From positions 21,679 to 85,678 of the forward strand of contig JAFYWC010000020.1 of the NCBI GenBank assembly GCA_017546585.1: a stretch of 64,000 nt of DNA. Reading direction: 5' to 3'. Positions 28,293 to 56,737 of the stretch are shown here, one piece after another. The position numbers were made by a program, and so were the translations under genes. Source of the stretch: Bacteroidales bacterium (lineage in GTDB: Bacteria > Bacteroidota > Bacteroidia > Bacteroidales > UBA932). The notes under the pieces are model-generated. The model searched no databases. It had not been told where the DNA came from and worked only from the letters and a program-made list of their open reading frames with translations. Each line of letters opens with the position of its first letter. Position 1 is the first letter of the stretch.

Positions 28293-28355
28293 CGCAATTT
28301 GTGGTATTAAATACGCAAATTGTGCAGAATTTCTTTTTGTACCTTCTTAACTTTG
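28293..28355 (+). promoter_or_regulatory. Operator O1 and promoter of the SusCD operon
   Basis: Two direct half-sites, CGCAATTTG (28293-28301) and CGCAAATTG (28314-28322), are exactly 21 bp apart. The -7 element TAACTTTG (28348-28355) begins 34 bases after the proximal half-site starts. The outer bases also make an imperfect inverted repeat (ATTCTGCGCAATTTG / CAAATTGTGCAGAAT). The geometry matches operators O2-O4. Placement next to the -33 region fits class II activation by an AraC-type protein. The 75-base leader contains the hairpin GCAGATT-GTGTA-AATCTGC (28362-28380). Confidence 0.75.
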
Positions 28356-28429
28356 TACATTGCAGATTGTGTAAATCTGCGTATGGATGAAACTGACAAA
28401 CACAACTAACCAACATAAAATTTAACAAA

Positions 28430-31400
28430 ATGAAACAGAAAGTAGTCCATTTTTCCAAGCTGGCTGCTCTGATGTGTCTGTTCCTGGGAATGTGGGGGTC
28501 TGGTGCTCTCGCACAGAACAGGGGTGTTACCATCAACGGTAATGTCGTTGACGCGTACGGAGAGCCGGTAATCGGTGCGGCTGTTACCATCCAGGGAACG
28601 ACCACCGGTGTGGCTGCCGACATGGACGGAGGCTTTACGCTTACCGTACCCGGTGAGAATTCTGTGATCGAGGTATCTGGCCTTGGCTACGTCACTGAAG
28701 TGATAACCGTAGGCAAGAAGCGGACATTCAGCGTCGTGCTTCAAGAGGATACCCAGACCCTTGAAGCAACGGTTGTGGTCGCTTATGGTACGCAGACCAG
28801 AGCTACCATTACCGGAGCCTTGACGTCCATCGACACTAAGGCCCTGGTCGAAGCGCCAGTAGCCGATGTCACCAACATTCTCGCCGGCCAGATGCCGGGT
28901 GTCTCCACTATTCAGGAGAGCGGTCAGCCGGGTGAAGACTATGCCAAGATCTACATCCGAGGCGTAGGTTCCCTGAGCGACTCCAATTCCAGCCCTCTCA
29001 TCCTGGTCGATGGTGTCGAGCGTCCGATGAACACTGTGGATCCGAACGAAATCGAGAGTCTGTCCGTCCTGAAGGACGCTGCCTCTACAGCGGTGTTCGG
29101 TGTGCGCGGTGCGAACGGTGTCATCATCATCACCACCAAGCGAGGCGACGCAGGCAAGCCAAAGATTTCAGTCAGTTCCATCACCGGTGTCCAGATGCCG
29201 ATGTCCTACATCGAGCAGTGCGACAGCTACGATTTTGCCCGTTACTACAACGTTTACCAGTGGAACGATGGCAAGACAGATCCGGGCCTGTACTTTACTC
29301 GCGAGGCCATCGAGGCTTACCGCACAGGTTCAGATCCTATTATGTATCCGAACACACACTGGAACGAGCTGATGTTCCGCGATGCTTTCCTTCAGACCAA
29401 GAACAACATCAACATCTCAGGTGGCTCCGACAAGGTGCGCTACTTCGTGTCGATGGGTTATATGTTCCAGAACGGTCTGCTTAAGCAGATTCCAGGCGTT
29501 ACTTATGACAACAACTACGCGTATAACCGTTACAACTACCGCGCGAACCTCGACTTCAAGCTTACTGAAACCACAGATATGAAGTTCAACATCAGCGGTG
29601 TGATCGGCAATACACGCGAGCCGCTGAATGACGGTCGTGACAACATCTGGATGCTTACTATGCTGTGGGCCCATCCGACAGCATCTCCGGGAATTGTGAA
29701 CGGTATGCCTGTGACAGTGGTTTCATACGACGCACTTCCAGACGGCCTCACCAAGTGGAACGGTTGGGAGTATTACTATTGGTCGGGTTATCAGAGCAAG
29801 TTCAAGACCACCCTCGGAATGGATATGACCATTACCCAGAGACTGGACTTCATCACCGAAGGTCTCAGCGCTTCTATTATGGGTTCATATGATACCGATA
29901 TGTCCCTGACAAAGAAACGTACCGGTTCCGGTGGTTATGAGCAGACTATCGAGTACGCATCTTGGGCTGACGGATCAGGTATGGATATCTCCGATCCAGC
30001 TTTCGACCGTACATATGTCCCAGTGATCAGTGGAAGCCAGCCTACCTTGAGCTATAGCGAGTCTACCGATGACGACAAGAGCTGGTATCTGGAAGCCCGT
30101 ATCGACTACAGACGCAAGTTCGCTCAGAAACATTCGGTAAGCGGTCTCCTCCTGTACAACCAGTCACGCGACTACTACCCTTCGAAATATAGCTGGCTCC
30201 CATACGGTTACGTGGGTTGGGTGGCACGCGCTACCTATGGCTATGACGATAAATACCTCGTTGACTTCTCTGCCGGTTACAACGGTTCCGAAAACTTCGC
30301 TCCAGGCAAGACACGCTACGGTCTGTTCCCTTCAGCTTCCCTTGGTTGGGTTATTTCCGAGGAAGATTTTATGGAGAAGGTCAGCTGGGTCGACTTCCTC
30401 AAGCTTCGTGCTTCTGTCGGCCTCGTAGGTAACGATCAGGGTAATTCAGTCCGATTTATGTATATGGACGGTGTCTGGAACGAGGCCGGTTCATATTACT
30501 TTGGTGTGAACAAGAGCGACGGCGTTCCTCGCTATGAATTGGGAACACCGGGCAATGCAGGTGTGACCTGGGAGACTGCGCTCAAGTCCAACGTCGGTCT
30601 GGACTTCGACCTGTTCAACAACCGCCTCCATTTCTCAGGCGACCTCTTCTACGAGCACCGTACAGGTATCCTGATTTCTCCTAATTCGCTGCCTTCGATC
30701 ATTGCTACGTCACTTCCGAATATGAACCTCGGTGTAGTGGATAACAAGGGTTATGAAATCGAAGTCGGCTGGAATGATCGCGTCGGCAATTTCACTTACG
30801 ATATCAACGCCAACGTCACCTTCGCCCGCAACAAGATCATCTATCAGGACGAAGTTGAGCCAGAATACGAATACCAGCGTGAGACCGGCGGTTCTACCGG
30901 CCGCTATATGCTGTATCAGTTCGAGCGTCTGTACCAGAAGAGCGACTTCTATACTGATGCTGACGGAGTGTTGCGCTTGAATCCGGATCTGCCACAGCCT
31001 TCCAATGCCGTATATCCGGGCGACTGTATGTATAAGGACCTCAACGGTGACAAGATCATCGACGGACGCGACAGAATGTACGACGGTTATCCGAACCGTC
31101 CTGAATACGTGTTCGGTTCAAACTGGAAGTTTGGTTACAAGGGCTTCAACCTGAACCTGAACTGGGTGGCAGCCACAAATGTGAGCCGTGTATGGAACGA
31201 CGACTACCGTATTCCGTTTACGAACTCCGGCCACCGAGGCCTGTTGAAGATCTTCGCGGAGAACTCTTGGATCGACAATGACAATCCTTGGGCTCCAGGT
31301 CGTGAGGACGGCACCCTGCCGCGTTTCACCAAGACTAACTACCCTTGGAACTCTATGGATTCCACCCTTTGGACTGTGGATGCCTCATACCTCCGTCTCA

Positions 31401-31606
31401 AGAGCGCCAGCTTCGGTTACACATTCTCACGCAGCCGCTTCTTGGAGAAGTTGGGTATCAACTCCCTGGGCGTGATGTTCACAGGATATAACCTCTGGAC
31501 TCTCTCTAAGATGAAACTGCAGGATCCGGAAGCGAAATCAAAGTCATCCGACGGACAGTACCCATTGGTCAAGACATATAACCTTGCCCTTAACATCAAC
31601 TTCTAA
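28430..31606 (+). CDS. SusC-like TonB-dependent transporter 1
   Basis: 1058 residues. A signal peptide ends near GSGALAQ. A CarboxypepD_reg-like domain covers about 33-112 (VTINGNVVDAYGEPVIGAAV...), then a TonB-box-like TVVVAYGTQ. The plug holds LAGQMPGVSTIQESG, YIRGVGSLSDSNSSPLILVDG and VFGVRGANGVIIITTKRG, classic SusC signatures. The barrel ends LALNINF. It imports oligosaccharides captured by its SusD lid. It is first in an operon of nine genes running to 47046. Leucine is encoded mostly by CTG/TTG, unlike the CTC/CTT use in aspS and other core genes, a hint of different ancestry. Confidence 0.96.
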   Translation: MKQKVVHFSKLAALMCLFLGMWGSGALAQNRGVTINGNVVDAYGEPVIGAAVTIQGTTTGVAADMDGGFTLTVPGENSVIEVSGLGYVTEVITVGKKRTFSVVLQEDTQTLEATVVVAYGTQTRATITGALTSIDTKALVEAPVADVTNILAGQMPGVSTIQESGQPGEDYAKIYIRGVGSLSDSNSSPLILVDGVERPMNTVDPNEIESLSVLKDAASTAVFGVRGANGVIIITTKRGDAGKPKISVSSITGVQMPMSYIEQCDSYDFARYYNVYQWNDGKTDPGLYFTREAIEAYRTGSDPIMYPNTHWNELMFRDAFLQTKNNINISGGSDKVRYFVSMGYMFQNGLLKQIPGVTYDNNYAYNRYNYRANLDFKLTETTDMKFNISGVIGNTREPLNDGRDNIWMLTMLWAHPTASPGIVNGMPVTVVSYDALPDGLTKWNGWEYYYWSGYQSKFKTTLGMDMTITQRLDFITEGLSASIMGSYDTDMSLTKKRTGSGGYEQTIEYASWADGSGMDISDPAFDRTYVPVISGSQPTLSYSESTDDDKSWYLEARIDYRRKFAQKHSVSGLLLYNQSRDYYPSKYSWLPYGYVGWVARATYGYDDKYLVDFSAGYNGSENFAPGKTRYGLFPSASLGWVISEEDFMEKVSWVDFLKLRASVGLVGNDQGNSVRFMYMDGVWNEAGSYYFGVNKSDGVPRYELGTPGNAGVTWETALKSNVGLDFDLFNNRLHFSGDLFYEHRTGILISPNSLPSIIATSLPNMNLGVVDNKGYEIEVGWNDRVGNFTYDINANVTFARNKIIYQDEVEPEYEYQRETGGSTGRYMLYQFERLYQKSDFYTDADGVLRLNPDLPQPSNAVYPGDCMYKDLNGDKIIDGRDRMYDGYPNRPEYVFGSNWKFGYKGFNLNLNWVAATNVSRVWNDDYRIPFTNSGHRGLLKIFAENSWIDNDNPWAPGREDGTLPRFTKTNYPWNSMDSTLWTVDASYLRLKSASFGYTFSRSRFLEKLGINSLGVMFTGYNLWTLSKMKLQDPEAKSKSSDGQYPLVKTYNLALNINF

Positions 31607-31618
31607 ACCGAGCGAACC

Positions 31619-33460
31619 GTGAAAAAAATAACACAACTTTTGACAATCGCCCTTGTGGGCGCTGGTGTGGTCGCTTGTGAGAGCATGAGATTGGGAGACG
31701 CCGGTCTTTCCCAGGCTCCGGAAACTTCCGGCGCCACAATCGACACTCTGTTCGCGTCAGTGAAAGACGCCGACAAGGTGCTGACTACGGCTTACTATTA
31801 TCTCCCTTACGGTCTGATCTCCGATTTCGATTCCAAGATGGGAGGCGATTTCCTGGAGTCTATCACCGATCACTTCATCAGCAATAAGCATTCGGACAGC
31901 GACGGTCCGAACAACCTATATTATTCAGGCGGTCTTTCTGCCAACTTGACCGGTTCCTATGCCGGTGGTGAGAATTACCGCTTCGGCAGCGAGAAGGATT
32001 ACTACGTGATCCGTTATGCTTGGCTGTTCCTGGAGAACGCCGACCGCATTCCTGACGCTGATCCCGCCCTCCTCGCTCAGAAGAAGGCTGAAGCCAAGGT
32101 ATGTATGGCCATTGCCTATTCGAATATGCTCCGTTATGTGGGCGGTGTTCCTATCTTGAAACACGCAGTCGATCCTGCTGAGAATATGCACTATCCGCGC
32201 AACACATTCGCTGAGACAGTCGATTACATCGTGAGCCTTTGTGATGAGGCTGCTCCGGATCTTCCGTGGTCTGTAAGCGCTGTGGACGATGGCCGTATGA
32301 CTCGCGCCGCTGCGTTGGGTCTCAAGCTGCGCGTCCTCTGCTTCGCCGCTTCGCCGACTTTCAATTCTGATAAGAAATGGCATCCTCTGGCGGACGAGTA
32401 CACCTGCTATGGAAACTATGACCATTCCCGTTGGCAGGCAGCGAAGGATGCGGCTGATGAGTTTATGCGCGAGCAGCTGGCAAACGGCCACTACGCATTG
32501 TGTGAAGCTCAGCCAGATGCGTTGACAGGTCTGATCACTCCTCGCTCTTACCGTTTGGCTTACCGCAAGGGTTATTATGAGCGTGGAAGCTCAGAGAGCA
32601 TCATTTCCATCCGCAAGTCCAACAGCACCAGCTACAACGACAAACATTACGAGGTACAGGGTTCCTACGGTAGTGGAGCATCCCTTAACTGGGTGAACAA
32701 GTTCCCGTGGGCAGACGGTACGACATTCCCTGAGGATTTCCCTTGGGAGGATAAGACCGCTTGGCCTGAGCATCCGTTCTTCAAGCCGGACCCAATGGGT
32801 ACGCTGAAAGTGAATGGAGCTACCTTCTCCGAGACACGTGACCCTCGCTTGTACGAGAATGTCTGCGTTCCTGGCGACATCTGGAGAGACGGCTCTGTGG
32901 GCCGCGCCTACGACAATCACAAGTATCACCAGGACGGCTGTCCAGGTTTCCTTATGATGAAGTTCGTTCTTCAGCAGAATACCGACCGCTCACAGCCGCA
33001 GCACTGGCCATTTATGCGTTTCGCTGAAGTGCTTCTTAATTGTGCTGAGGCATACAATGAGGCAGACGGCTTCCCGTCAGACAAGGCTTACACTTGGGTG
33101 AACGCCGTACGTTCACGCGTCGGCCTGCCTGGCCTCCCGGAGGGTATGACTAAGGAAGAATTCCGCGATGCTCTCATCCTGGAGCGTGAACTCGAGTTCG
33201 GTTTTGAGGAGGTTCGTTGGTTCGATATGATCCGCTGGGGTCTGGTTGACGCCTTCATTACTCCGCTCAAGGGTCTTACATCCTTCGGCGACAGCAACAA
33301 CGCGGCGACAGTTTTCACCTTCAAGGAAAAGGATGCGTATCCACCTCGCAAGTGGTACACATACAACGCTGCCGATTGGGATACCAAGTGGTATCTTGCC
33401 CCAATCCCTGCTATTGAGATCAACAAGAACTACGGAATGACTCAGAATCCGGGTTGGTAA
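31619..33460 (+). CDS. SusD-like substrate-binding lipoprotein 1
   Basis: 613 residues beginning with GTG at 31619, 12 bases after SusC1. KKITQLLTIALVGAGVVAC is the lipoprotein signal. SusD features include TTAYYYLPYG at the N-terminus, the helical tetratricopeptide-like region (KAEAKVCMAIAYSNMLRYVGGVPIL), and the C-terminal motifs MRFAEVLLNCAEAYNEADG, RDALILERELEFGFEEVRWFDMIRWG and a final PIPAIEINKNYGMTQNPGW. It is the outer lid of the SusC1 transporter and sets the oligosaccharide size and type. Confidence 0.95.
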   Translation: MKKITQLLTIALVGAGVVACESMRLGDAGLSQAPETSGATIDTLFASVKDADKVLTTAYYYLPYGLISDFDSKMGGDFLESITDHFISNKHSDSDGPNNLYYSGGLSANLTGSYAGGENYRFGSEKDYYVIRYAWLFLENADRIPDADPALLAQKKAEAKVCMAIAYSNMLRYVGGVPILKHAVDPAENMHYPRNTFAETVDYIVSLCDEAAPDLPWSVSAVDDGRMTRAAALGLKLRVLCFAASPTFNSDKKWHPLADEYTCYGNYDHSRWQAAKDAADEFMREQLANGHYALCEAQPDALTGLITPRSYRLAYRKGYYERGSSESIISIRKSNSTSYNDKHYEVQGSYGSGASLNWVNKFPWADGTTFPEDFPWEDKTAWPEHPFFKPDPMGTLKVNGATFSETRDPRLYENVCVPGDIWRDGSVGRAYDNHKYHQDGCPGFLMMKFVLQQNTDRSQPQHWPFMRFAEVLLNCAEAYNEADGFPSDKAYTWVNAVRSRVGLPGLPEGMTKEEFRDALILERELEFGFEEVRWFDMIRWGLVDAFITPLKGLTSFGDSNNAATVFTFKEKDAYPPRKWYTYNAADWDTKWYLAPIPAIEINKNYGMTQNPGW

Positions 33461-33478
33461 TCTTAAATGTGCACGAAT

Positions 33479-36223
33479 ATGAAAAGATTGTTAGCATACA
33501 TAACCCTTCCGCTTCTGCTCGTCAGCGCGACGGCTTCCGCACAGAATGCCACATCGCCGCTGGACTCCGTCAACCTGGGAAACCTGTTCGGGTTCCAGGC
33601 CAACGGCAATCCGGTAATGTGCGAGAGCATCTTCGAGAAGAGTCCTGAAGTGGATGTTGCCAACGCCCTATATGGGCAGTTATCCGGCCTCTTGGTGAAG
33701 AATAGCTCCAGTGTATATGACTCTAACCAGTCTAAACTGAAGCTGGCCCTTCGCCTGCACGGCCACAGCCCGCTCGTATTGGTGGACGGCGTTCCCCGTT
33801 CATTGGACGACCTTGACGGTATCGAGATCGAGAAGGTTGAAGTCCTCAAGGATGCGGTCGCTTCCGCTCTGTACGGTGTGAAAGGCGGCAACGGAGTTGT
33901 CTCCATCACTACCAAACGCGGAAAGGATTCGCCGTTGAAGGTGACTGCAAAGTACCAGTACGGCTATCAGACTATGTTCCGCGCCCCTGAATTTGCGGAC
34001 GCTTATACCTATGGCTTCCTCGTGAACGAGGCCCGTACTTTGGACGGACTGCCAGTCAAGTACAACGATGCCGAACTGCTCGCCTTGTACAGTGGCCAGT
34101 ATCCGTACGCATATCCGAACGTGAACTGGTGGGACGAAGTATACCGTAACCACGGAGACAACCACCAGGCTGAATTCACCTTTATGGGCGGTAACCGCAA
34201 TTTCCGCTATTTCACTGCGGTGGAATATCTGAAGGAGGATTTCCTTTATAAGAAGGCTACCTCTGACGACCGCTACAACGCGAACCATTATGACAACCGT
34301 CTGGGTATCCGCGCCAATGTAGACGTGAACATTACGGAATCCACTCTGATGAAGATCAATGTGAAAGCCCGTCTGGCAGAATTCAACAAGGGTAACTACA
34401 GCGGCCGTATCGAAGAGACCCTGTATACTCTCCCTTCTGCTGCTTTCCCTGTGAAGCAGGCTGACGGTACCTACGGCGGCACTTCTTTGTACGGAGCCGC
34501 GAATCCGGTAGCCCAGATGCAGGAGCTTGGACAGAAGCAGTATTCACAGACCAAGGTGCTGGCTGATATGCTGCTCCGTCAGGATCTCGGAATGTTTGTT
34601 CCTGGTCTTTCTGTCGATGCCGGTATCGCTTTCGACTATATCGGACGTTTGTCAGAGGACGCCACAAAGGAGTTCCAGTATTCGGAGCTTATCAGCACGT
34701 TGGCTACTCAGGGCAACCAGAGCTACATCCTCTCTGAGCAGAAGTACTATGGCACGAATTCCAAGACCGTCGAGTACAGCCACTGGTTCTCTAACCTGCA
34801 GATGAAGATGGAATTCCAGGCACGCGTAAATTGGGAACGTGACTTCGGCGTCAACCACATCGACGCTCACGCCGCGTACCGCCAGCGCTCTTGGATCCTC
34901 AGCGGACAGAACAACTCTTCCAAGACACAGGAGGTTCTGGGTACGGTGAGCTATAACTGGAAGAAGCGTTTCTTTGCTGATGCAGTTGTCAACTACTCAG
35001 GTTCATCCTATTTGCCTAAGGGCAGCCGCTTCAATGTATATCCGGCCTTGAGTCTGGCGTACATCGTTCTGGACAAGAACTCGTACGTGAAGGTGTACGG
35101 CTCCGCTGGTCTCAGCGGTTCTGACTCTGATTTGGAGCACGAACTCTGGCGCCAGAACTATGTGAGCGGTAACAGCTATTACTTCGGTCCTAATGGCGGT
35201 TCTAGCTTCAGCGGCCGCACAGAAGGCGATATGGCTGCCGTCACACTTGCTCCGGAACTCTCACGCAAGGCTACATTCGGCGTAGACCTGGGCTTCTTTG
35301 ACAAGCGACTTATGGTCAATGCTGAAGGCTTTGCAGAGGATCGCCGCAACATCCTCATCTCTCCATCAAACATTTCAGAGGTGATCGGTGTGGGTGTGAA
35401 CGAGCAGAGCGTCGGCGAATATACTTATAAAGGTGTAGATCTTTCCGTTTCCTGGAACAACCGTCACGGAGACTTTGACTACGGCGTATACGCCAACGGC
35501 GGATGGCTGTTTACCGAAGTGATCAACGACGGTCAGGCCTACCAGATGTACGACTACCTCTACCACAAGGGTAACCCTGTGGGCCAGTGCTACGGTCTTG
35601 AGGTCATCGGCATCTTCCAGAACCAGCAGGAAATCAACAACAGCCCGCAGCAGACATTCGGCGCTGTCCGTCCCGGCGACCTCAAGTACCGCGACCAGAA
35701 CGGCGACGGTGTCATCGACAAGCAGGACCGCGTGAAGATGTTCGGTAGTACTACTCCGCTCCTCCAGTTCGGTTTCGGTCTCAATTTCGGTTATAAGAAC
35801 TTCAAGGTATATGCAGATTTCCAGGGTGTGACAGGTGTCACCGTCGACCTTTTGGATTCTCCACTGTACCAGCCGCTTGTGTCTAACGGAACTATCTCCA
35901 AGACATTCCTGGACCGCGAAATCACCTGGGCTCCTGGCCGCGAGGCTTACGCTACGATGCCGCGCTTGACTACACAGGAGAACCCGAACAACTACCAGGC
36001 GAACTCGCTGTGGTACCGCGACGGTTCCTTCATCAAGCTCCGCAACTTGGGCATATCATATACTATTCCTAAGAAGGTGATGAGAGTCTGCGATGCAACG
36101 GTCACACTGACCGGAACGAACCTGTTCAGCCTCGACAATATCGGTTTTGCCGATCCTGAGCAGCTGGGCGCCTATTATCCTTCTACCCGAGTCTTCTGGG
36201 CCGGTATCAAGTTCAACTTCTAA
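33479..36223 (+). CDS. SusC-like TonB-dependent transporter 2, lacking the N-terminal regulatory domain
   Basis: 914 residues from the ATG at 33479 (MKRLLAYITLPLLLVSATASAQ signal). Unlike SusC1 it has no CarboxypepD_reg-like domain and no obvious VVVGYG TonB-box stretch; the plug begins almost at once (FEKSPEVDVANALYGQLSGLLV). Plug signatures present: LVLVDGVPRSLDDLDGIEIE and ALYGVKGGNGVVSITTKRG. The barrel ends VFWAGIKFNF. The frame is intact, so it is a genuine shorter type, perhaps depending on SusC1 or on a different TonB contact. It is paired with SusD2, 12 bases downstream. Confidence 0.93.
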   Translation: MKRLLAYITLPLLLVSATASAQNATSPLDSVNLGNLFGFQANGNPVMCESIFEKSPEVDVANALYGQLSGLLVKNSSSVYDSNQSKLKLALRLHGHSPLVLVDGVPRSLDDLDGIEIEKVEVLKDAVASALYGVKGGNGVVSITTKRGKDSPLKVTAKYQYGYQTMFRAPEFADAYTYGFLVNEARTLDGLPVKYNDAELLALYSGQYPYAYPNVNWWDEVYRNHGDNHQAEFTFMGGNRNFRYFTAVEYLKEDFLYKKATSDDRYNANHYDNRLGIRANVDVNITESTLMKINVKARLAEFNKGNYSGRIEETLYTLPSAAFPVKQADGTYGGTSLYGAANPVAQMQELGQKQYSQTKVLADMLLRQDLGMFVPGLSVDAGIAFDYIGRLSEDATKEFQYSELISTLATQGNQSYILSEQKYYGTNSKTVEYSHWFSNLQMKMEFQARVNWERDFGVNHIDAHAAYRQRSWILSGQNNSSKTQEVLGTVSYNWKKRFFADAVVNYSGSSYLPKGSRFNVYPALSLAYIVLDKNSYVKVYGSAGLSGSDSDLEHELWRQNYVSGNSYYFGPNGGSSFSGRTEGDMAAVTLAPELSRKATFGVDLGFFDKRLMVNAEGFAEDRRNILISPSNISEVIGVGVNEQSVGEYTYKGVDLSVSWNNRHGDFDYGVYANGGWLFTEVINDGQAYQMYDYLYHKGNPVGQCYGLEVIGIFQNQQEINNSPQQTFGAVRPGDLKYRDQNGDGVIDKQDRVKMFGSTTPLLQFGFGLNFGYKNFKVYADFQGVTGVTVDLLDSPLYQPLVSNGTISKTFLDREITWAPGREAYATMPRLTTQENPNNYQANSLWYRDGSFIKLRNLGISYTIPKKVMRVCDATVTLTGTNLFSLDNIGFADPEQLGAYYPSTRVFWAGIKFNF

Positions 36224-36235
36224 ACAGGAAAAAAG

Positions 36236-37918: not shown

Positions 37919-37951
37919 CAGTCGTCAACTTTGGATAATAACTATCGATAT

Positions 37952-39634: not shown

Positions 39635-39646
39635 AGCTAATTTACT

Positions 39647-41182: not shown

Positions 41183-41197
41183 ACAAAGGACCTTTAA

Positions 41198-43051: not shown

Positions 43052-43080
43052 TTTGAAACTAATAACTAATATAAAACCAT

Positions 43081-44949: not shown

Positions 44950-44961
44950 CAAATCTTTACT

Positions 44962-49347: not shown

Positions 49348-49355
49348 CAAATATA
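49348..49355 (-). promoter_or_regulatory. -7 promoter element of the GH18-phosphatase gene
   Basis: Minus-strand TATATTTG, exact TAnnTTTG, 57 bases upstream of the start. No CGCAA half-site pair lies at the 33-35-base spacing on this strand, so this gene may be regulated differently or through the divergent O2 site. Confidence 0.55.
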
Positions 49356-49418: not shown

Positions 49419-49480
49419 CGCAAACAGTTGGAAATAATTCGCAATTTGTGTGTTTTACTATGTAATTTTATGTAAGTTTG
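49419..49480 (+). promoter_or_regulatory. Operator O2 and promoter of the alkaline phosphatase 1 / chitinase operon
   Basis: Half-sites CGCAAACAG (49419-49427) and CGCAATTTG (49440-49448) are 21 bp apart. The -7 element TAAGTTTG (49473-49480) begins 33 bases after the proximal half-site starts. Same layout as O1, O3 and O4. Confidence 0.72.
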
Positions 49481-49497: not shown

Positions 49498-50670
49498 ATG
49501 AAGAAGAGTTTTATTTCAATGGCAATGCTGTCGCTTGTGATGGCGATTACTGGCTGCTGCAATGAGCCGCAGGTAAAGAACGTCATCTATCTTATCGGTG
49601 ACGGTATGGGATTCGGAGCTGTGTCTACTTTGCTCCTTTCAGAGGATGAGCCGACAGGTTTCGAGATGGCACCGGTAATCGGTCTTCACGAGACTTGTTC
49701 AGCAAACAACTACGTGACTGACTCGGCTGCGGGTGGTACTGCCCTTGCTACAGGTACACGTACAAACAATGGCTATGTCGGAGCGGATCCTGACGGAAAT
49801 CAGCTTACAAGCGTCCTCAGAAAGGCTCAGACCTATGGTATGAAGACAGGTATCGTAGTTAACACTACTCTTACAGAGGCTACTCCAGGAGCATTCTACG
49901 GAGGCGTTACAAGCCGTAAATTCGTTTACGACATCGCAAAGCAGTTCACTGAGAGCGAGGTTGACCTTGCTATCGGTGGCGGTCTTGACCACTTCGTCGG
50001 CCGTCCGGACTCATTGGACCTCACAGCAACTCTTATCGAGAAGGGCTATGATGTATACCTCAACTGGGAGACTGTTCTTGAGACTGAATCGGACAAGTTT
50101 GTAGGTATCCTTCCTCTTTACGACCTCCACAGAAGAGAGGAGAACAACGGCGAAGCAAGCGCTGCCGAGGGTCAGGAGGTTTGCCTTGCAGCTCAGATGG
50201 CGGCCCTCAACGAGGATGCTGACCGTGAGCACCTCTCGGAGCCTACAGTATACCTCGAGAAGGCTACAGCAAAGGCGCTTGAAGTGCTTTCGCGCAACAA
50301 CAAGGACGGATTCTTCCTTATGATCGAGAGCGCAATCATCGACGGTTACGGCCACAATAACGACGGTGAGGGAATGGTAGTGGAAATGAAGGAGTTCAAT
50401 CGCACACTCCGTCAGATGATCGAGTATGTCAACCAGCATCCCGAGACTCTTCTTGTTGTGACAGCAGACCACGAGACTGGTGGTACAGGTGTATATTACA
50501 ACGGTCACACTCCTGGCAACGAAGGACCGCTCAGACTGAAATTCAGCACATCCGGCCACACCGGAACAGTCGTTCCTGTCTTTGCATACGGTGCAGGAGC
50601 AGAGAACTTTGCCGGCGTGATGAAGAACATCGACGTCCCTGCGAAGATCGACGCGCTTATCCGCAAGTAG
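49498..50670 (+). CDS. Alkaline phosphatase family protein 1 (lipoprotein)
   Basis: 390 residues. The signal MKKSFISMAMLSLVMAITGC places it in the periplasm or on the outer membrane. PhoA-superfamily active-site elements are complete: IGDGMG (metal Asp), VTDSAAGGTALATG with nucleophile Ser76, TTLTEATPGAFYGG, MIESAIIDGYGHNND (metal ligands), TADHETGG and SGHTG (zinc His). It hydrolyses phosphate monoesters. It is led by operator O2 and followed after one base by a GH18 chitinase, so phosphate removal and chitin cleavage are co-expressed. The natural substrate is unknown; a phosphorylated sugar is the contextual guess. Confidence 0.93.
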   Translation: MKKSFISMAMLSLVMAITGCCNEPQVKNVIYLIGDGMGFGAVSTLLLSEDEPTGFEMAPVIGLHETCSANNYVTDSAAGGTALATGTRTNNGYVGADPDGNQLTSVLRKAQTYGMKTGIVVNTTLTEATPGAFYGGVTSRKFVYDIAKQFTESEVDLAIGGGLDHFVGRPDSLDLTATLIEKGYDVYLNWETVLETESDKFVGILPLYDLHRREENNGEASAAEGQEVCLAAQMAALNEDADREHLSEPTVYLEKATAKALEVLSRNNKDGFFLMIESAIIDGYGHNNDGEGMVVEMKEFNRTLRQMIEYVNQHPETLLVVTADHETGGTGVYYNGHTPGNEGPLRLKFSTSGHTGTVVPVFAYGAGAENFAGVMKNIDVPAKIDALIRK

Positions 50671-50671
50671 T

Positions 50672-51697
50672 ATGAAAACGAGGATCTTTACAGCGTTGGC
50701 GGCATTGTTCGTGTGCCTGTCAACGCTTTCCGGATGCGCTGAGAAGGCTCCGGAAAAGGAATATGTGGTGGTCGCTTATGTGACTTCCTGGAGCCGTATT
50801 ATGCCGGATCCGTTCACTATGACGCATATCAACTATGCGTTCGGACACGTGAACGACACTTTTGACGGTGTCCGCATCGATAATCCTCGCCGCCTCAAGA
50901 GCATCGTGGAGCTCAAGTCGGTGAATCCGGAGCTCAATGTGATGCTGTCTGTAGGAGGATGGGGAAGCGGTCGCTTCAGCGAAATGGCTGCAGACGACGC
51001 CCGCCGTCTTTCATTCGCCCAGGACTGTCTCAAGGCTGTCGAGGAGTTCGGTCTTGACGGTATCGACATCGACTGGGAGTATCCTACAAGCGATGCTGCC
51101 GGCATTTCTTCGTCACCGGATGACAGGGAGAACTTCAACCTTCTGATGAGGGATCTCCGTGCAGTGCTTGGCGAGGACCGTCTTCTTACCCTTGCAAGTT
51201 CTGCCTATGCGGAGTACATTGATTTCTTCGCTTGCGAGCAGTATCTTGACTTCGTGAACATTATGACATATGATATGGCGACTGCTCCATACCATCACGC
51301 TGCCCTTTATGCTTCAGAGAACACCAAGGGCTGCTGCGAGGGAGCTGTCAAGGCTCACATTGAGGCTGGCGTGCCTGTGGAGAAACTTGTCCTCGGAATG
51401 CCGTTCTACGGCAGAGGCGGTACAGCAATGCCAAGATTCGTGGATTATAAGGATATCGAAGCGGGTGATGCCTATGTGGAGATGTGGGATGAGGTGGCTC
51501 AGGCTCCTTATCTTGCGGACCAGGAGGGAAATCTCGTTCTTGGATACGATACTCCAAAGTCTATGACACTGAAGTGTGACTTCATCAAGGCGACGGGCCT
51601 TCGTGGCGCAATGTACTGGGACTACGACGGCGACAACGCCTCCGGAGATCTCCGCACCGTCCTTGCCCAGCAGATGGGTGTGGTCGCTGCAGAATAA
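50672..51697 (+). CDS. GH18 chitinase (lipoprotein, single domain)
   Basis: 341 residues beginning one base after the phosphatase stop. A lipoprotein signal ends at Cys22 (STLSGC). The whole mature protein is a GH18 barrel: MTHINYAFGHV, MLSVGGWGSGRFSEMA, LDGIDIDWEYP with catalytic Glu136, YLDFVNIMTYDM, LVLGMPFYGRGG and GLRGAMYWDYDGD. It is closely similar over its length to the GH18 part of the phosphatase fusion (for example GISSSPxDxxNF), so the two probably arose by duplication. An endo- or processive chitinase of the surface or periplasm is expected. Hairpin element copy D begins at the base after its stop codon. Confidence 0.93.
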   Translation: MKTRIFTALAALFVCLSTLSGCAEKAPEKEYVVVAYVTSWSRIMPDPFTMTHINYAFGHVNDTFDGVRIDNPRRLKSIVELKSVNPELNVMLSVGGWGSGRFSEMAADDARRLSFAQDCLKAVEEFGLDGIDIDWEYPTSDAAGISSSPDDRENFNLLMRDLRAVLGEDRLLTLASSAYAEYIDFFACEQYLDFVNIMTYDMATAPYHHAALYASENTKGCCEGAVKAHIEAGVPVEKLVLGMPFYGRGGTAMPRFVDYKDIEAGDAYVEMWDEVAQAPYLADQEGNLVLGYDTPKSMTLKCDFIKATGLRGAMYWDYDGDNASGDLRTVLAQQMGVVAAE

Positions 51698-51921: not shown

Positions 51922-51925
51922 GTTT

Positions 51926-52001
51926 TGGAGCAGAAGACGAGGCTCGAACTCGCGACCCCAACCTTGGCAAGGTTGTGCTCTACCAACTGAGCTACTTCTG
52001 C
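51926..52001 (-). tRNA. tRNA-Gly (anticodon GCC)
   Basis: The minus strand folds as a full cloverleaf. The acceptor GCAGAAG pairs with CTTCTGC. The D arm is GCTCAGTTGGTAGAGC. The anticodon stem CAACC/GGTTG holds loop TTGCCAA, anticodon GCC. The T arm has GTTCGAG. Discriminator T and the CCA end are encoded. It lies alone between the chitinase and GH20 genes, with its own -7 element and terminator. Confidence 0.96.
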
Positions 52002-52031
52002 GTTTTGTCCCGTTGTTTTCGTTTGGGATTG

Positions 52032-52039
52032 CAAAGGTA
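52032..52039 (-). promoter_or_regulatory. -7 promoter element of tRNA-Gly
   Basis: Minus-strand TACCTTTG, exact TAnnTTTG, 30 bases upstream of the mature 5' end. Confidence 0.65.
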
Positions 52040-52109
52040 CGAACAAAAATTAAACTTCCAAACTTTTTTGAGATTTTTTTCAAAAAAAGTGAAAAAAAGT
52101 GCATTATTT

Positions 52110-52173
52110 CGCAAATTGAGTGCTGAAGTACGCAAAATGTACGGCAAATTCAGCGTTGATTCCTCTATATTTG
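52110..52173 (+). promoter_or_regulatory. Operator O3 and promoter of the GH20 / alkaline phosphatase 2 operon
   Basis: Half-sites CGCAAATTG (52110-52118) and CGCAAAATG (52131-52139) are 21 bp apart. The -7 element TATATTTG (52166-52173) begins 35 bases after the proximal half-site starts. An A/T-rich hairpin (about 52062-52090) lies upstream. Confidence 0.75.
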
Positions 52174-52204
52174 TGTCAGAAAATAAAACTAATCACCAAA
52201 TATT

Positions 52205-54286
52205 ATGAGAAAAAAATCGTTATTCGGTTTCTCTTTGTGTGCAGTTGCCCTCGCTTTTGTGGCATCAAGCTGCTGCAGCAAGACTTCTGTAGTATGGACA
52301 GAAGGCGAGACTGACCCTGAAACAGGTCGCGCTTTGAACACTCTTACTATCGTCAATGCGCCAAAAGGTACTGACTGGGCTGTATGGCTCACATCAAATC
52401 ACATCGTGGCAGAGCCTCTCGAAGGAACAGAGGGTGTGATCGAGCAGCATCACGGATGCTGGTACAAGATGACCCCTGCCGCGCACGAAGGAAAAGATCT
52501 TGTCGTCAAATATTCCGACCGTCCTCTCCAGCGTCACTGCTGGGCACCTGAGGGATTTGTCCTCGAGCAGGGCAAGAAGGTGAAGGCTCTCAAGGTAAAG
52601 TACGAGTTCCTCCCTTCAGAGAACATTCCTGATTTCCCTTATAATCACGTGCAGACTGAAGTGTGGGATATGGTCCCATCTCTCAAGAACGTGCAGCCGG
52701 CTGAGGGAACAACTGCCGTTGAGGCGGTTCCTGAGGCTGTGATGGTTGAAGGCCAGAAAGCAGGTTGGTACAAGATCACTCTCGACGGTACCTGCAAGAT
52801 CGAGGCTGCCGATGCTGACGGAGCATACTATGCAAAGGTAACAATGGACAACCTCTTCAGAAACGCAGGCGGCACAGAGCTTCCTAATATGGTGATCGAA
52901 GACTGGCCTGACCTTGCATATAGAGGCCTTATGCTCGATATCTCAAGAAACTTCACAAGCAAGGACAATCTCCTCAAGCTCATCGACCTTCTCGCACACT
53001 ACAAGGTGAGCATCTTCCACCTCCACTTCGGAGATGACGAGGGCTGGAGACTTGAAATGCCTCAGTTCCCTGAACTCACAACCTACGGAGCATACCACTC
53101 GTTCCCTGTAAAGAACGAAGCAGGCGAGTACGTTGAGGAGGAGTATCTCATCCCTTCATATGACGGATGTGCCGATCCTAAGGATATGACTTCCGCTTCG
53201 AACGGCCACCTTACAAAGGAGGACTACATCGAGATTCTCAAGTATGCGTGGGAGCGCCGCATCCAGGTCATCCCTGAGTTCGACACTCCAGGTCACTCAA
53301 GAGCGGCTATCAAGGCTATGGAGGCTTATGCAAAGCGTACAGGCGACGAGAGCTGCCTCCTCAGCGAGAAGGAGGACGTGTCCGAGTACTGCTCTGTGCA
53401 GTATTACAAGGACAACGCCATCAACGTGGCTCTCCCTTCTACATACAAGTTCATCGAGATCGTGTTCGACAACATCATCGCTTACCACAATGAGGCCGGT
53501 GTTCCTCTTCCGGCAATCCACGTAGGTGGTGACGAGGTTCCGGGCGGTGCTTGGGTAGGCTCGCCTGCCTGCCAGAAGATTATGGCGGAGAGAGGCTGGG
53601 ACAACATCGAACTCCTCAAGTCATACTATATCGAGAACGTCCTCAGCATCGCTGAGCAGAGAGGCGTGAAGATCGCAGGATGGCAGGAGCTTGTGATGGA
53701 CCTTGAGGACCACACATACGAGAGAATGAAGAAGAGCCTTTATTCTATCAACTTCTGGCACACAGGACACGGACAGGAGGAGTATCCTTATCACTATGCA
53801 AACGACGACGTTCCTGTCATTCTTTCGAATATGACCAACACTTATATGGACTTCGCGTACACTACTGACAAGACCGAGAGAGGTCTTTCCTGGGGTGGTT
53901 TCGTGGATGAGCGTCGCAGCTTCTGCCTCCTTCCATATGACATCTACCGTTCGGTACGTTGGGATGACCGCGGAAGAATGCGCGACATCTCAAACCTTCC
54001 TGCAGGCAAGACAGAGCTTAAGAAGCAGGAGAACATTGCAGGTATCCAGGCTCAGCTCTGGACAGAGACTGTAAGAAACTTCGATCACGTCACATCGTAC
54101 ATCTTCCCTAAGGTCTGCGGAGTGTTCGAGAGAGCGTGGAACGCAAGCCCGACTTGGGAGGGCACTCTCAAGGCTGACGATCCTGTATTTATGGAAGAAC
54201 TCGACAGATACTACAGCACAGTGGTTGACCGTGAGATGCCTTACTACGAGGAACAGGGTATCGCTTACCGTCATAGAAAGAATTAA
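52205..54286 (+). CDS. GH20 beta-N-acetylhexosaminidase
   Basis: 693 residues. A signal peptide with a cysteine cluster (FVASSCCSK) suggests a lipoprotein. The N-terminal 200 residues are the GH20b-type alpha/beta domain. The GH20 barrel begins DWPDLAYRGLMLDISRNFTSKD, continues LLAHYKVSIFHLHFGDDEGWRLE and RRIQVIPEFDTPGHSRAAIKAM, and shows the catalytic pair in HVGGDEVPGG (Asp443-Glu444). It releases terminal GlcNAc or GalNAc from oligosaccharides such as chitobiose. It is under operator O3, and the second alkaline phosphatase follows after 20 bases. It would complete what the GH18 enzymes start. Confidence 0.95.
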   Translation: MRKKSLFGFSLCAVALAFVASSCCSKTSVVWTEGETDPETGRALNTLTIVNAPKGTDWAVWLTSNHIVAEPLEGTEGVIEQHHGCWYKMTPAAHEGKDLVVKYSDRPLQRHCWAPEGFVLEQGKKVKALKVKYEFLPSENIPDFPYNHVQTEVWDMVPSLKNVQPAEGTTAVEAVPEAVMVEGQKAGWYKITLDGTCKIEAADADGAYYAKVTMDNLFRNAGGTELPNMVIEDWPDLAYRGLMLDISRNFTSKDNLLKLIDLLAHYKVSIFHLHFGDDEGWRLEMPQFPELTTYGAYHSFPVKNEAGEYVEEEYLIPSYDGCADPKDMTSASNGHLTKEDYIEILKYAWERRIQVIPEFDTPGHSRAAIKAMEAYAKRTGDESCLLSEKEDVSEYCSVQYYKDNAINVALPSTYKFIEIVFDNIIAYHNEAGVPLPAIHVGGDEVPGGAWVGSPACQKIMAERGWDNIELLKSYYIENVLSIAEQRGVKIAGWQELVMDLEDHTYERMKKSLYSINFWHTGHGQEEYPYHYANDDVPVILSNMTNTYMDFAYTTDKTERGLSWGGFVDERRSFCLLPYDIYRSVRWDDRGRMRDISNLPAGKTELKKQENIAGIQAQLWTETVRNFDHVTSYIFPKVCGVFERAWNASPTWEGTLKADDPVFMEELDRYYSTVVDREMPYYEEQGIAYRHRKN

Positions 54287-54306
54287 CTGATAAAGAAGAT
54301 TGAATT

Positions 54307-55461
54307 ATGAGAAAGATGTTTTTTATCGCCTCTCTTTTCCTGGGGTTTGCCTATGTGGCAAACTCTCAGGTGCTTGACAGAGACAGGTCAAAGTATGCAG
54401 TGAACAATTTCGCAGAGGATGACAAGTACGTTATGCTGGAGCCGTATGAGACGGTTTCTGTCCAGGAGCCGAAAGGAAAGAAGGTGAAGAACATCATCTT
54501 TATGATCGGCGACGGTATGGGTCTCGAGCAGATCAGCGCAGCCTGGGTATGCAACGGAGGACTCAATCTTGACAACTTCTCGAAGGTCGGTATCCAGAGG
54601 ACATATTCTGCGAACAAACTCGTTACGGATTCTGCGGCTGCAGGTTCTGCATTGGCGACAGGTCAGAAGACCAACAACGGTATGATTGCGATGAATCCGG
54701 ATTCCGTTGCCGTGAAATCTCTTGCTGAAGAAGCGATGGAGAAAGGCAAGAGAGCAGGTGCTGCAGTTACCTGCCGCGTAACCGATGCTACTCCTGCCGT
54801 ATTCTTCAGCCACACTACAACCCGCAAAAATATGGATGACATTGCAGTCCAGATGACCAACAGCGGTGTGTACTTCCTTTCAGGCGGCGGCACAAGATAT
54901 TGGAGCGGCAGAGAGGACGGTGTTGATCTTGTAGGCCAGGCAGAGGCTATGGGTTATACATACGTTGAGACAAAGGAAGAGATGATGGCGGTAGAGAACG
55001 GTCCGGTGATCGCCCTTATGGACGAATATGAGCTTAAGCCGGCTCTCGACCGTGGTGACATCCTTCCGTCTGCAGTGACAAAGGCCCTTCAGGTTCTTGA
55101 CAACAAGAAAGGCTTCTTCCTTATGATCGAGGGCTCTATGATCGATGACGGCGGTCACGACAACAAGGCCGGAATGACAATGGAGGAACTCTTCGACTTC
55201 GACCGTACTCTCGGTATCGTTCTCGAGTGGGCGGCAAAGGACGGTGAGACTCTTGTGGTGGTTACAGGTGACCACGCTACAGGCGGTATGACTCTTCTGA
55301 GCGGCAGCCTTGAAGAGAAGAGAATCCGCGTGAACTATTCTACTACAGGTCACAACGGTATTGCCCTTCCTGTATTCGCCTGGGGACCACATTCAGAGGA
55401 CTTCGTGGGCGTGTACGAGAATGCAGAGCTTTCAGACAAGATCAGAGCATTGATCAAATAA
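54307..55461 (+). CDS. Alkaline phosphatase family protein 2 (periplasmic)
   Basis: 384 residues. The signal peptide MRKMFFIASLFLGFAYVANSQ lacks a lipobox, so the enzyme is probably soluble in the periplasm, unlike phosphatase 1. Active-site elements: FMIGDGMG, VTDSAAAGSALATG with nucleophile Ser109, VTDATPAVFFSH, MIEGSMIDDGGHDN, TGDHATGG and TTGHNG. It shares the GH20 operon (O3). Its stop codon abuts the convergent stop of the XylR-type regulator with no spacer and no terminator between them. Confidence 0.93.
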   Translation: MRKMFFIASLFLGFAYVANSQVLDRDRSKYAVNNFAEDDKYVMLEPYETVSVQEPKGKKVKNIIFMIGDGMGLEQISAAWVCNGGLNLDNFSKVGIQRTYSANKLVTDSAAAGSALATGQKTNNGMIAMNPDSVAVKSLAEEAMEKGKRAGAAVTCRVTDATPAVFFSHTTTRKNMDDIAVQMTNSGVYFLSGGGTRYWSGREDGVDLVGQAEAMGYTYVETKEEMMAVENGPVIALMDEYELKPALDRGDILPSAVTKALQVLDNKKGFFLMIEGSMIDDGGHDNKAGMTMEELFDFDRTLGIVLEWAAKDGETLVVVTGDHATGGMTLLSGSLEEKRIRVNYSTTGHNGIALPVFAWGPHSEDFVGVYENAELSDKIRALIK

Positions 55462-56622
55462 TCATATTCCCGAATTCCTGAGCCTGTATTCGTTAGGCGA
55501 ACAGCCGTACACGGCCTTGAATTTCTTGGAAATGCTTTTTGCGTCGCTCTCTCCTATGGAGAGGGCGATGTTTATTACCTGCTCGTTCGTTTCAAGGAGC
55601 ATCTCTGCAAAGGTCTTCAGCCTCAGCGCGAAGATGTACTGGTAGATGCTCTGTCCGGTCACTTCCTTGAAGCGGATCTCCAGCAGTCGGCGGGAGAGCG
55701 CGACCTGTTCCACGACGTCATCTACAGAGAGTTTCTTCCTGCCGTTCTGGTGTATGAACATCAAGGCCTTCTGTATTTCGCTGTCGCCGGTCGCATATGC
55801 GGCCGTTGATATCCTGTGGATGATCTTTGTCGGGCGCAGAACGATGTCCTCGTGTTTTTCGTCCGGTGATTCCACCATTTTTTCTATGAGTTCCGCCACC
55901 TTGTATCCTCCGCCTTCGATGTCTATCGCTATGGTCGAGAGCGTCGGGATGCTGAGGTTGCACAGAAGGTCGTCATTGTCCACTCCCAGGATGGAAACCT
56001 CCTGCGGAATCTTTATGCCTGCAGAGTTGCAGGCCTCTATCAGGTTGTTGCCCTGATTGTCGTCGCAGGCCATAATGCCGATCGGCTTCGGAAGCCCCTT
56101 GAGCCACTTTGCGAGCGCCTCCCTTTCGTAGAACCAGTGGCGGTCGATGTCCTGCGTGTTGTATTTGTGGACGGATCCTTCCTGTCCGCTCTTCTTGATC
56201 TCCTTGAAGAATCCTTCAAACCTCTCATCGGACCAGCACACATCCTTGAGTCCGAAGAATCCGAAATTGCGGAATCCTCGGTCCAGATAATATCTGGCCG
56301 CCATCTTTCCGGTGCCTTTGTAGTCGCCTGTTATGTTCGGGACACCGTGGAGCCTTTTCTTGAAGTCCTGGGCAATGACGATGATGCCTTCTTCGCGGAG
56401 CATTCCGATGTCGTCACCGTCCTCGAACGTGCCTATCACCACGTCGATCTCCCATTCCTTCGCCACCTTCAGAATTCCCTCCATACCAATGGATTGCTTG
56501 TAGTATGACGGCATCCTGCTGATGGACCACTGGCCCTTCTCTTTGGAGAAATCGATGATGCCTTTGAGCAGCCTGTTGGCGTATGAATCCGAATAGTCTG
56601 TGATGAAAAGCAGTCTTATCAT
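55462..56622 (-). CDS. XylR-type transcription regulator, second paralogue
   Basis: 386 residues. The N-terminal sugar-sensor domain (MIRLLFITDYSDSYANRLLKG, IGIMACDDNQGNNLIEACN, SILGVDNDDLLCNLSIPTLS) and the C-terminal AraC double helix-turn-helix (SVDDVVEQVALSRRLLEIRFK, VINIALSIGESDAKSISKKFK) match the regulator at 27095 along the whole length. It is divergent from the ROK kinase gene, with operator O4 between them, so it may control both that operon and itself. Which paralogue binds which operator cannot be decided from sequence. The shared half-site motif suggests overlapping targets. Confidence 0.93.
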   Translation of the reverse strand: MIRLLFITDYSDSYANRLLKGIIDFSKEKGQWSISRMPSYYKQSIGMEGILKVAKEWEIDVVIGTFEDGDDIGMLREEGIIVIAQDFKKRLHGVPNITGDYKGTGKMAARYYLDRGFRNFGFFGLKDVCWSDERFEGFFKEIKKSGQEGSVHKYNTQDIDRHWFYEREALAKWLKGLPKPIGIMACDDNQGNNLIEACNSAGIKIPQEVSILGVDNDDLLCNLSIPTLSTIAIDIEGGGYKVAELIEKMVESPDEKHEDIVLRPTKIIHRISTAAYATGDSEIQKALMFIHQNGRKKLSVDDVVEQVALSRRLLEIRFKEVTGQSIYQYIFALRLKTFAEMLLETNEQVINIALSIGESDAKSISKKFKAVYGCSPNEYRLRNSGI

Positions 56623-56645
56623 ATGCGGTCAAGTCTTGGATGACA

Positions 56646-56653
56646 CAAAAATA
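56646..56653 (-). promoter_or_regulatory. -7 promoter element of the second XylR-type regulator
   Basis: Minus-strand TATTTTTG, exact TAnnTTTG, 24 bases upstream of the start. Operator O4 begins 22 bases further upstream, so binding there could affect this promoter. Confidence 0.6.
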
Positions 56654-56674
56654 GCATAATTTATCAATCTTCTG

Positions 56675-56737
56675 CGCAAATTGCGTTTGCAAATACGCAA
56701 AAAGCCATACGACAACTTACCATATATGGTAAATTTG
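56675..56737 (+). promoter_or_regulatory. Operator O4 and promoter of the ROK / GH2 operon
   Basis: Half-sites CGCAAATTG (56675-56683) and CGCAAAAAG (56696-56704) are 21 bp apart. The -7 element TAAATTTG (56730-56737) begins 34 bases after the proximal half-site starts. The ROK start codon follows at 56756. Confidence 0.75.

What the first reader, a model, noticed from the sequence alone, without database searches (positions are those of the whole stretch)
28293..56737. Four promoters share one 21-bp-spaced direct-repeat operator
Seen directly: CGCAAnnnG half-sites occur as direct pairs exactly 21 bp apart at 28293/28314, 49419/49440, 52110/52131 and 56675/56696. In every case the proximal half-site starts 33-35 bases before an exact TAnnTTTG element. 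These control SusC1, alkaline phosphatase 1 plus chitinase, GH20 plus alkaline phosphatase 2, and ROK plus GH2. Two-turn direct-repeat spacing next to the promoter is what AraC/XylR-type activators use, and two XylR-type paralogues flank the locus. Together they define a regulon whose substrate, regulator and operator can be studied as one system.
Basis: partly seen in the sequence, partly recalled or inferred. Interest (0 to 1): 0.85.

Follow-up and report, generated by a model that had tools for sequence, protein, structure and literature searches.

The report
Shared operator of a chitin-type locus
Four promoters of a gut bacterium's chitin-type sugar-use locus carry the same paired DNA switch, kept at a fixed distance from the promoter in related bacteria that have the same kind of sugar-sensing regulator, so it is very probably that regulator's binding site; the design is known, and I found no description of this instance.

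Summary
Two regulators of XylR architecture (LacI-type sensor, AraC-type HTH) lie beside O1 and O4. A half-site matrix trained on the window alone finds 61 further promoter-linked pairs in 43 of 105 relatives' loci; among the spacings tried 21 stands alone, and 65 of 67 TAnnTTTG matches start 33-35 bp from box 2. Strict sites: 10 of 30 family genomes with the regulator, 0 of 168 without; order-wide 2 of 13 against 0 of 330. Best reading: a ligand-gated activator operator of RegA/RegB for a GlcNAc/glucosamine-glycan regulon. Binding, ligand and sign of control are not shown. The architecture is known (XylR, HTCS motifs): new member of a known kind.

The parts
28293..28322 (+). O1: half-sites 28293-28301 and 28314-28322
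   Evidence: 36.6 bits
28348..28355 (+). TAnnTTTG element of the O1 promoter, 34 bp from box 2
28430..47046 (+). operon 1, nine genes: SusC1, SusD1, a 918-aa gene without Pfam match called SusC2 by its place, SusD2, two BACON proteins, a 617-aa gene without match, DUF4988, GH18a
   Evidence: run-through transcription inferred from short gaps
49419..49448 (+). O2: half-sites 49419-49427 and 49440-49448
   Evidence: 31.0 bits
49473..49480 (+). TAnnTTTG element of the O2 promoter, 33 bp from box 2
49498..51697 (+). operon 2: alkaline phosphatase AP1, GH18b
52110..52139 (+). O3: half-sites 52110-52118 and 52131-52139
   Evidence: 32.7 bits
52166..52173 (+). TAnnTTTG element of the O3 promoter, 35 bp from box 2
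52205..55461 (+). operon 3: GH20, alkaline phosphatase AP2
56675..56704 (+). O4: half-sites 56675-56683 and 56696-56704
   Evidence: 31.4 bits
56730..56737 (+). TAnnTTTG element of the O4 promoter, 34 bp from box 2
56756..60115 (+). operon 4: ROK kinase, GH2 exo-glucosaminidase-like
27095..28261 (+). RegA, XylR-architecture regulator, 388 aa; ends just before O1
55462..56622 (-). RegB, XylR-architecture regulator, 386 aa; divergent from O4
56646..56653 (-). TAnnTTTG-like element before RegB; O4 box 1 lies 22-30 bp upstream of it
47114..49291 (-). GH18 fused to Y_phosphatase3; its own TAnnTTTG at 49355 (-); no operator pair in its orientation

Best explanation
O1-O4 are the operators of the two XylR-architecture one-component regulators RegA and RegB. 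Each operator is a direct repeat of about TTgCGCAAATTGnG with starts 21 bp apart, so that two DNA-binding domains lie on one face of the helix two turns apart; the proximal box ends just upstream of the -33 region of a Bacteroidota promoter whose TAnnTTTG starts about 34 bp from the box start. When the LacI-type sensor binds a cytosolic product of the pathway (most likely a GlcNAc- or glucosamine-containing mono- or disaccharide, possibly phosphorylated), the protein fills both boxes and recruits RNA polymerase (class II activation, like AraC at araI). This switches on SusCD uptake, chitinase, hexosaminidase, exo-glucosaminidase, phosphatases and ROK kinase together. The operator's existence, spacing, promoter distance and tie to this regulator family are shown by comparison; binding, ligand and positive control are inferred.
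For: Four exact copies before four operons and no other promoter-linked copy in the draft genome. Window-trained matrix on relatives: 24 pairs of 20 bits or more at spacing 21 against 0-1 at 14 other spacings in 33 loci; 56 against 0-4 at 18 other spacings in 80 loci, and 48 (17 bits or more) against 0-2 with TAnnTTTG at 33-35 (8 of these 80 repeat loci). 65 of 67 TAnnTTTG matches at 33-35. Strict-site genomes: 10 of 30 with the regulator, 0 of 168 without, own genome left out; in 9 of the 10 the site lies within about 2.3 kb of the regulator gene, in G171 on another contig. Order-wide: 2 of 13 against 0 of 330. Tree: 36 of 41 regulators of one Bacteroidales clade have the operator in the fetched locus; RegB subclade 14 of 16, RegA subclade 18 of 19. 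SRRLLE stands in HTH1 of both paralogues. The next window-type gene is a ROK kinase at 30 of 61 relative sites; one relative's target has glucosamine-6-P isomerase and PIG-L domains. G000 has 10 AraC-type HTH genes, none in an open frame over 471 aa, so none of HTCS size.
Against: 20 of 30 regulator-bearing family genomes and 11 of 13 in the order sample lack the strict site; matrix sites with TAnnTTTG were found in three of the former (G040, G177, G033). Outside the 41-row clade only 7 of 61 regulators have a promoter-linked matrix site, and a 26-row Cytophagales clade, 46-49% identical to RegB, has none even with a relaxed -7 element. 41 of 106 matrix pairs of 17 bits or more have no TAnnTTTG at 33-35; part of them are opposite-strand or overlapping readings. 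Matrix and strict pattern derive from the same four window sites. Nothing here shows binding, ligand or direction of control; eight other AraC-type genes of the genome are not excluded.
Confidence: 0.87

Rival explanations
1. The repeat is an operator, but of another AraC-type protein of the genome or of an HTCS; RegA and RegB only happen to lie nearby.
For: Predicted HTCS motifs of Bacteroides are direct repeats with a mean of 21 bp between sites (PMC3878776, passages). G000 has eight further AraC-type HTH genes.
Against: No HTH_18 match of G000 lies in an HTCS-sized frame (draft genome, 95.6% complete). The strict site occurs in 0 of 168 family and 0 of 330 order genomes without the RegB homologue; other AraC-type genes in those genomes were not counted.
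Confidence: 0.06
2. RegA/RegB bind the repeat as repressors that are released by the ligand.
For: The sensor domain is of the LacI/GalR type. O4 box 1 lies 22-30 bp upstream of the divergent TAnnTTTG of RegB (56653), where binding could block the RegB promoter.
Against: At all four operons the boxes lie upstream of, not over, the -7 element, and the 34-bp distance is conserved in relatives, as expected for contact with polymerase rather than occlusion. Vibrio XylRA, of the same architecture, activates (PMC12125979, passages); E. coli XylR is called an activator in a cited title.
Confidence: 0.06
3. The two paralogues have split roles: one activates, the other competes for the same boxes or forms a mixed dimer with it, so that the locus integrates two ligands. 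This refines the best explanation rather than replacing it.
For: Both are present here, 49% identical; each subclade keeps the same operator in other genomes, of which all but G000 and G194 among 31 family genomes show a single match at 1e-40 (G194's two are near-copies of one type).
Against: No data on ligands or mixed dimers; they could be redundant.
Confidence: 0.3
4. Chance repeats, or a duplicated promoter cassette without regulatory role.
For: Only CGCAA and one G are fixed in all eight half-sites.
Against: 0 full patterns in 300 simulations; spacers and flanks differ between the four copies; L114, whose SusC1 is 95% identical, keeps the boxes in an intergenic stretch that has otherwise diverged.
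Confidence: 0.01

Closest known systems
E. coli XylR (4fe4/4fe7) and Vibrio XylRA
   Same: LacI-type ligand domain plus AraC-type HTH; sites are two direct repeats at the controlled promoters (XylRA: PMC12125979, passages; the E. coli structure paper is not held, so its details are recalled). RegB matches 4fe4 at 6.5e-37 over residues 52-384.
   Different: XylRA's repeats are A+T-rich and serve xylose/xylan genes; here the core is CGCAA, the promoter is TAnnTTTG, and the targets are chitin/glucosaminide-type genes.
HTCS operators of Bacteroides thetaiotaomicron (Ravcheev et al. 2013, PMC3878776)
   Same: Predicted direct repeats with a mean of 21 bp between sites, AraC-type HTH, control of PULs; two pairs of HTCS paralogues are proposed there to share one motif each (passages).
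   Different: HTCSs combine a sensor, kinase and receiver in one protein; RegA and RegB are one-component proteins of 386-388 aa. 'XylR' in that paper is an NrtR-family protein. Neither CGCAA nor TTGCG occurs in its main text; its supplements were not open to me.
AraC at araI1-I2
   Same: Direct repeat two turns apart, proximal half-site next to the polymerase element, stronger distal box (recalled, from no call).
   Different: Sensor domain (cupin versus LacI-type), half-site sequence, promoter class; a distant looping site was not looked for.

Membership tests
XylR-architecture regulators (LacI-type sensor + AraC HTH) | Peripla_BP_3 domain followed by a C-terminal AraC-type double HTH | tested here: met
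   E. coli XylR is the best solved relative of RegB (RegA not run)
XylR-architecture regulators (LacI-type sensor + AraC HTH) | operator of two direct repeats two helical turns apart at the controlled promoters | tested here: met
   that the repeat is the regulator's operator is by association
XylR-architecture regulators (LacI-type sensor + AraC HTH) | ligand-dependent binding and activation | not testable with these tools
   needs protein and DNA in vitro
XylR sensu stricto (xylose operon regulator) | controls xylose or xylan genes | tested here: not met
   no Pfam match of the genes of the four operons is a xylose or xylan family; the commonest target in relatives is ROK
HTCS | histidine kinase and receiver domains in the same protein | tested here: not met
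   only Peripla_BP_3 and AraC HTH matches in RegA and RegB
AraC-type class II operator | proximal half-site at a fixed position next to the polymerase-binding elements | tested here: met
   65 of 67 TAnnTTTG matches at 33-35 bp; transcription start not mapped
Bacteroidota housekeeping promoter | TAnnTTTG -7 element upstream of the gene | tested here: met

The most novel reading that the evidence does not exclude
A Bacteroidota family of cytosolic XylR-architecture regulators controls GlcNAc/glucosamine-glycan loci in place of HTCS or sigma/anti-sigma systems, through one operator grammar (CGCAA, 21 bp, 34 bp to the -7 element) that reaches, weakened, into early-branching Cytophagales rows. In this genome two paralogues with different ligands read the same four operators, so that four operons respond to a combination of two sugars, one of them perhaps a phosphorylated amino sugar made available by the locus's phosphatases.
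Probability: 0.25. Interest if true: 0.65.

Novelty: new member of a known kind. Interest (0 to 1): 0.5.

Why it matters
Here regulator, operator, promoter and targets of a polysaccharide-use locus are linked with strong comparative support, and the grammar is strict enough to find further members by pattern search. Two paralogues beside identical operators allow a clean test of how duplicated regulators divide work. Named relatives with the operator (Bacteroides heparinolyticus L113, Bacteroides cutis L110) make the prediction open to a bench test.

Tried and rejected
Tried with little result: (1) an operator for Cytophagales regulators. With TAnnTTTG required there was one weak de novo hit in 32 loci, and no 7-mer pair at spacing 21 was shared by more than 2 loci (the pair count was highest at 21, 528 against 101-452 at the other spacings). 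On checking the draft of this report I relaxed the -7 element to TAnnnTT and the matrix to 14 bits: the 26-row clade still gives 0 at spacing 21, but 5 of the other 6 loci (L115, L138, L159, L164, L169) give 7 sites at 33-35 bp, against 0 at spacings 19, 20, 22 and 23. So a weaker form of the operator exists there; I had first written that there was none. (2) Other operator classes in distant family loci: mostly low-complexity hits. (3) Literature: eight searches listed no paper that I recognised as on a XylR-architecture regulator of a chitin or glucosamine PUL in Bacteroidota. Capped lists: one search showed 15 of 34 papers, 10 of 44, 10 of 18, 15 of 196; the rest were not seen. I read listings, and passages of PMC3878776, PMC12125979 and PMC11253607 only.

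Rejected: chance; an HTCS of this genome. Doubtful hits: four sites share one coding-like sequence (G033, G091, G124, G169), and G013, G044, G050, G076, G082, G104, G107 and G162 fit box 1 poorly. The first count, before box 1 was restricted, is 13 of 31 regulator genomes (own included) against 10 of 168 (p 1.1e-6). With box 1 held to CGCAAWWTG none of the 168 remains. That restriction was chosen; three of the four window sites fit it (O2 does not). The order-wide search used it unchanged on 344 genomes, 339 of them not in the family sample; but the G316 site has the same letters as the site at L170:11248 that I had already seen, so only G256 was wholly unseen. Regulator thresholds differ: 1e-40 in the family, 1e-60 in the order.

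Full report
Observation. Simulated windows never gave the full pattern (0 in 300; pair alone 3 in 300). A matrix from the eight half-sites scores the four at 31.0-36.6 bits and everything else in the window at 19.3 or less over spacings 18-25. In the genome (2,494,267 bases, 163 contigs, 95.6% complete) CGCAA-N16-CGCAA has 10 places against 3 for the reversed pattern; with TAnnTTTG behind it there are 4, all here, against 0.

Surroundings. O1 is followed by nine genes with gaps under 30 bp: SusC1, SusD1, a 918-aa gene without Pfam match that I call SusC2 by its place, SusD2, two BACON proteins, a 617-aa gene without match, DUF4988 and GH18, ending at a hairpin between 47046 and 47114 seen by eye. 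O2 precedes an alkaline phosphatase and a GH18; O3 a GH20 and a second alkaline phosphatase; O4 a ROK kinase and a GH2. The best solved relative of the GH2 is exo-beta-D-glucosaminidase (2vzs, 4.4e-118; beta-mannosidases 7e-25 at best). The GH18-phosphatase gene on the other strand is nearest to a chitinase (5gzu, 1.7e-84), GH20 to hexosaminidases and chitobiase, ROK to glucokinase and GlcNAc kinase, AP2 to true alkaline phosphatases (2w5v, 9.5e-66). NCBIfam gave no match over its cut-off among the seven proteins scanned. Chitin- or chitosan-like glycans are the likely substrate, by inference from families.

Regulators. RegA (27095-28261, +) and RegB (55462-56622, -) have a Peripla_BP_3 domain and an AraC-type double HTH and are 49% identical; RegB matches E. 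coli XylR best among solved structures (RegA was not run). Their HTH1 reads MSRRLLEQRFK and LSRRLLEIRFK, the corresponding part of HTH2 DAKSISRRFK and DAKSISKKFK; that these are recognition helices is recalled from AraC-family structures. In 29 aligned homologues S310, R311, R312 and E315 are invariant. The genome has 10 HTH_18 matches, two of them these, none in a frame over 471 aa.

Relatives. Of 199 family genomes 31 (own included) have a RegB homologue at 1e-40. I fetched 33 loci (L088 and L090 for a pattern hit, the rest for the regulator) and scanned 553,764 bases: spacing 21 gave 24 pairs of 20 bits or more, 14 other spacings 0 or 1; with TAnnTTTG at 31-37, 22 pairs of 17 bits or more against 0. 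In 80 further loci with organism names (1,502,002 bases; the best 80 of 580 found) it was 56 against 0-4 at 18 other spacings, and 48 against 0-2 with TAnnTTTG at 33-35. Part of the pairs are opposite-strand readings of the same site, because CGCAAWTTGCG is nearly a palindrome. After removal of eight repeated loci there are 61 promoter-linked sites in 43 of 105 loci; the next window-type gene is ROK in 30, SusC1 in 9, GH2 in 3, GH18 in 3, SusC2 in 1, none in 15; L061-L064 are near-copies. Nine targets were scanned with Pfam: two GH18, a glucosamine-6-P isomerase/PIG-L protein, a GH2 + alkaline phosphatase frame, GH92, an MFS transporter, DUF6057, a DegT aminotransferase, and one without a match. 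GH92 and the aminotransferase do not speak for chitin.

Geometry. Over 106 pairs of 17 bits or more (window included), TAnnTTTG within 20-52 bp of box 2 starts at 34 (55), 35 (8), 33 (2), 31 (1) and 26 (1); 65 pairs have it at 33-35 and 41 do not. From 52 non-redundant sites at 34 the consensus is TTgCGCAAATTG.G.att.aAATACGCAAATt, then TA.tTTTG. Summed by hand, eleven columns hold about 15.1 bits in box 1 and 10.9 in box 2: the distal box is the better one. That recalls AraC (strong distal, weak proximal half-site; recalled) and fits ligand-gated filling of the proximal box (inference). In the window itself O2 is the other way round: its proximal box fits better. If TAnnTTTG starts near -12, box 2 covers about -46 to -38, just upstream of the -33 element (inference).

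Association. The pattern gave 27 sites in 23 of 199 genomes (reversed control: 1): 13 of 31 genomes with the regulator, own included, against 10 of 168 without (p 1.1e-6). With box 1 as CGCAAWWTG, 10 of 30 regulator genomes and 0 of 168 others keep a site, own genome left out (p 1.5e-9). That box was fixed, so I repeated it on an order-wide sample of 344 genomes, 339 of them new: 3 have the site (own, G256, G316; reversed control 0) and all three are among the 14 with the regulator at 1e-60; without the own genome 2 of 13 against 0 of 330 (p 0.0013). In G316 the site is beside the regulator gene, in G256 about 16 kb away on the same contig. The G316 site has the letters of L170:11248, seen before.

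Phylogeny. In a tree of 102 regulators the operator label needs 11 changes against 33.0 for shuffled labels. One Bacteroidales clade of 41 has it in 36; outside it 7 of 61 have it. The RegB subclade has it in 14 of 16 and the RegA subclade in 18 of 19, so both paralogues probably descend from regulators that use this operator; the branch of the 19-row RegA subclade has weak support (95/47). A Cytophagales clade of 26 has none, also with a relaxed -7 element; 5 of 6 other Cytophagales-type loci have 7 weaker sites at the same geometry. The three Cytophagales loci whose gene content I looked at have ROK near the regulator (L123, L130, L147). In 25 chosen Bacteroidales and 32 Cytophagales rows the latter differ in HTH1 (SRRaLEKRF) and HTH2 (DSKNIARQF); whether this bears on the operator is open.

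Footprint. L114 has a SusC1 95% identical to the window's and a RegA 74% identical. In the intergenic alignment of window, L114 and L109 the boxes and TA.CTTTG stand out as invariant stretches.

Mechanism. The best-supported account is an activator operator read by RegA and/or RegB. Shown: the sites, their spacing, promoter distance and tie to the regulator family. Inferred: binding, ligand, activation. A possible autoregulatory loop: on the - strand O4 box 1 reads CGCAATTTGCG and starts 32 bp before the TAnnTTTG of RegB (56653), though the pair on that strand scores only 12.1 bits; L156 shows a like reading before its regulator (20.2 bits, 31 bp).

Known and new. Two-turn direct repeats are the predicted form of HTCS sites (mean 21 bp; PMC3878776, passages), and XylRA of Vibrio binds sites of two A+T-rich direct repeats and responds to xylose (PMC12125979, passages). 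What seems new, within the eight capped searches named under Tried and rejected, is a XylR-architecture regulon for GlcNAc/glucosamine glycans in Bacteroidota with this CGCAA operator, and two paralogues on one set of operators. I score it as a solid, testable regulon prediction of known type.

Noticed in passing
window 47114-49291 (-), 49498-50670, 54307-55461; L118:3567-6923: Three phosphatase domains in one chitin-type locus: two alkaline phosphatases and a GH18 fused to Y_phosphatase3. AP2 homologues lie beside GH2 in many of the relatives listed and share one open frame with GH2 in L118 (cut by the contig end). Phosphorylated amino-sugar glycans may be part of the substrate; not tested.
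   Followed up: partly
window 27091-27095; L114, L109: RegA starts one base after the pheS stop codon, and pheS directly precedes the RegA homologue in L114 and L109 too, so this sensor may be expressed with a housekeeping gene.
   Followed up: partly
window 56622-56704; L156:9907: O4 box 1 is nearly palindromic and also faces the divergent RegB promoter (TAnnTTTG at 56653, -) at 32 bp; a like arrangement is in L156 at 31 bp. Possible autoregulation.
   Followed up: partly
L115, L138, L159, L164, L169 and the 26-row Cytophagales clade: Weaker operator-like pairs with the same 21/33-35 geometry but a relaxed -7 element occur in five early-branching Cytophagales-type loci; the 26-row clade, whose regulators are 46-49% identical to RegB, shows none, and its operator is unknown.
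   Followed up: partly
L061, L062, L063, L064, L065: A second conserved operator in these loci stands before a DUF6057 gene (Pfam run on L061 only; the others have a 569-aa frame at the same place).
   Followed up: no
L091:13886-15808, also L095 and L096: The operator precedes a protein with glucosamine-6-phosphate isomerase and PIG-L deacetylase domains (Pfam run on L091 only), which links the regulon to GlcNAc/GlcN breakdown.
   Followed up: partly
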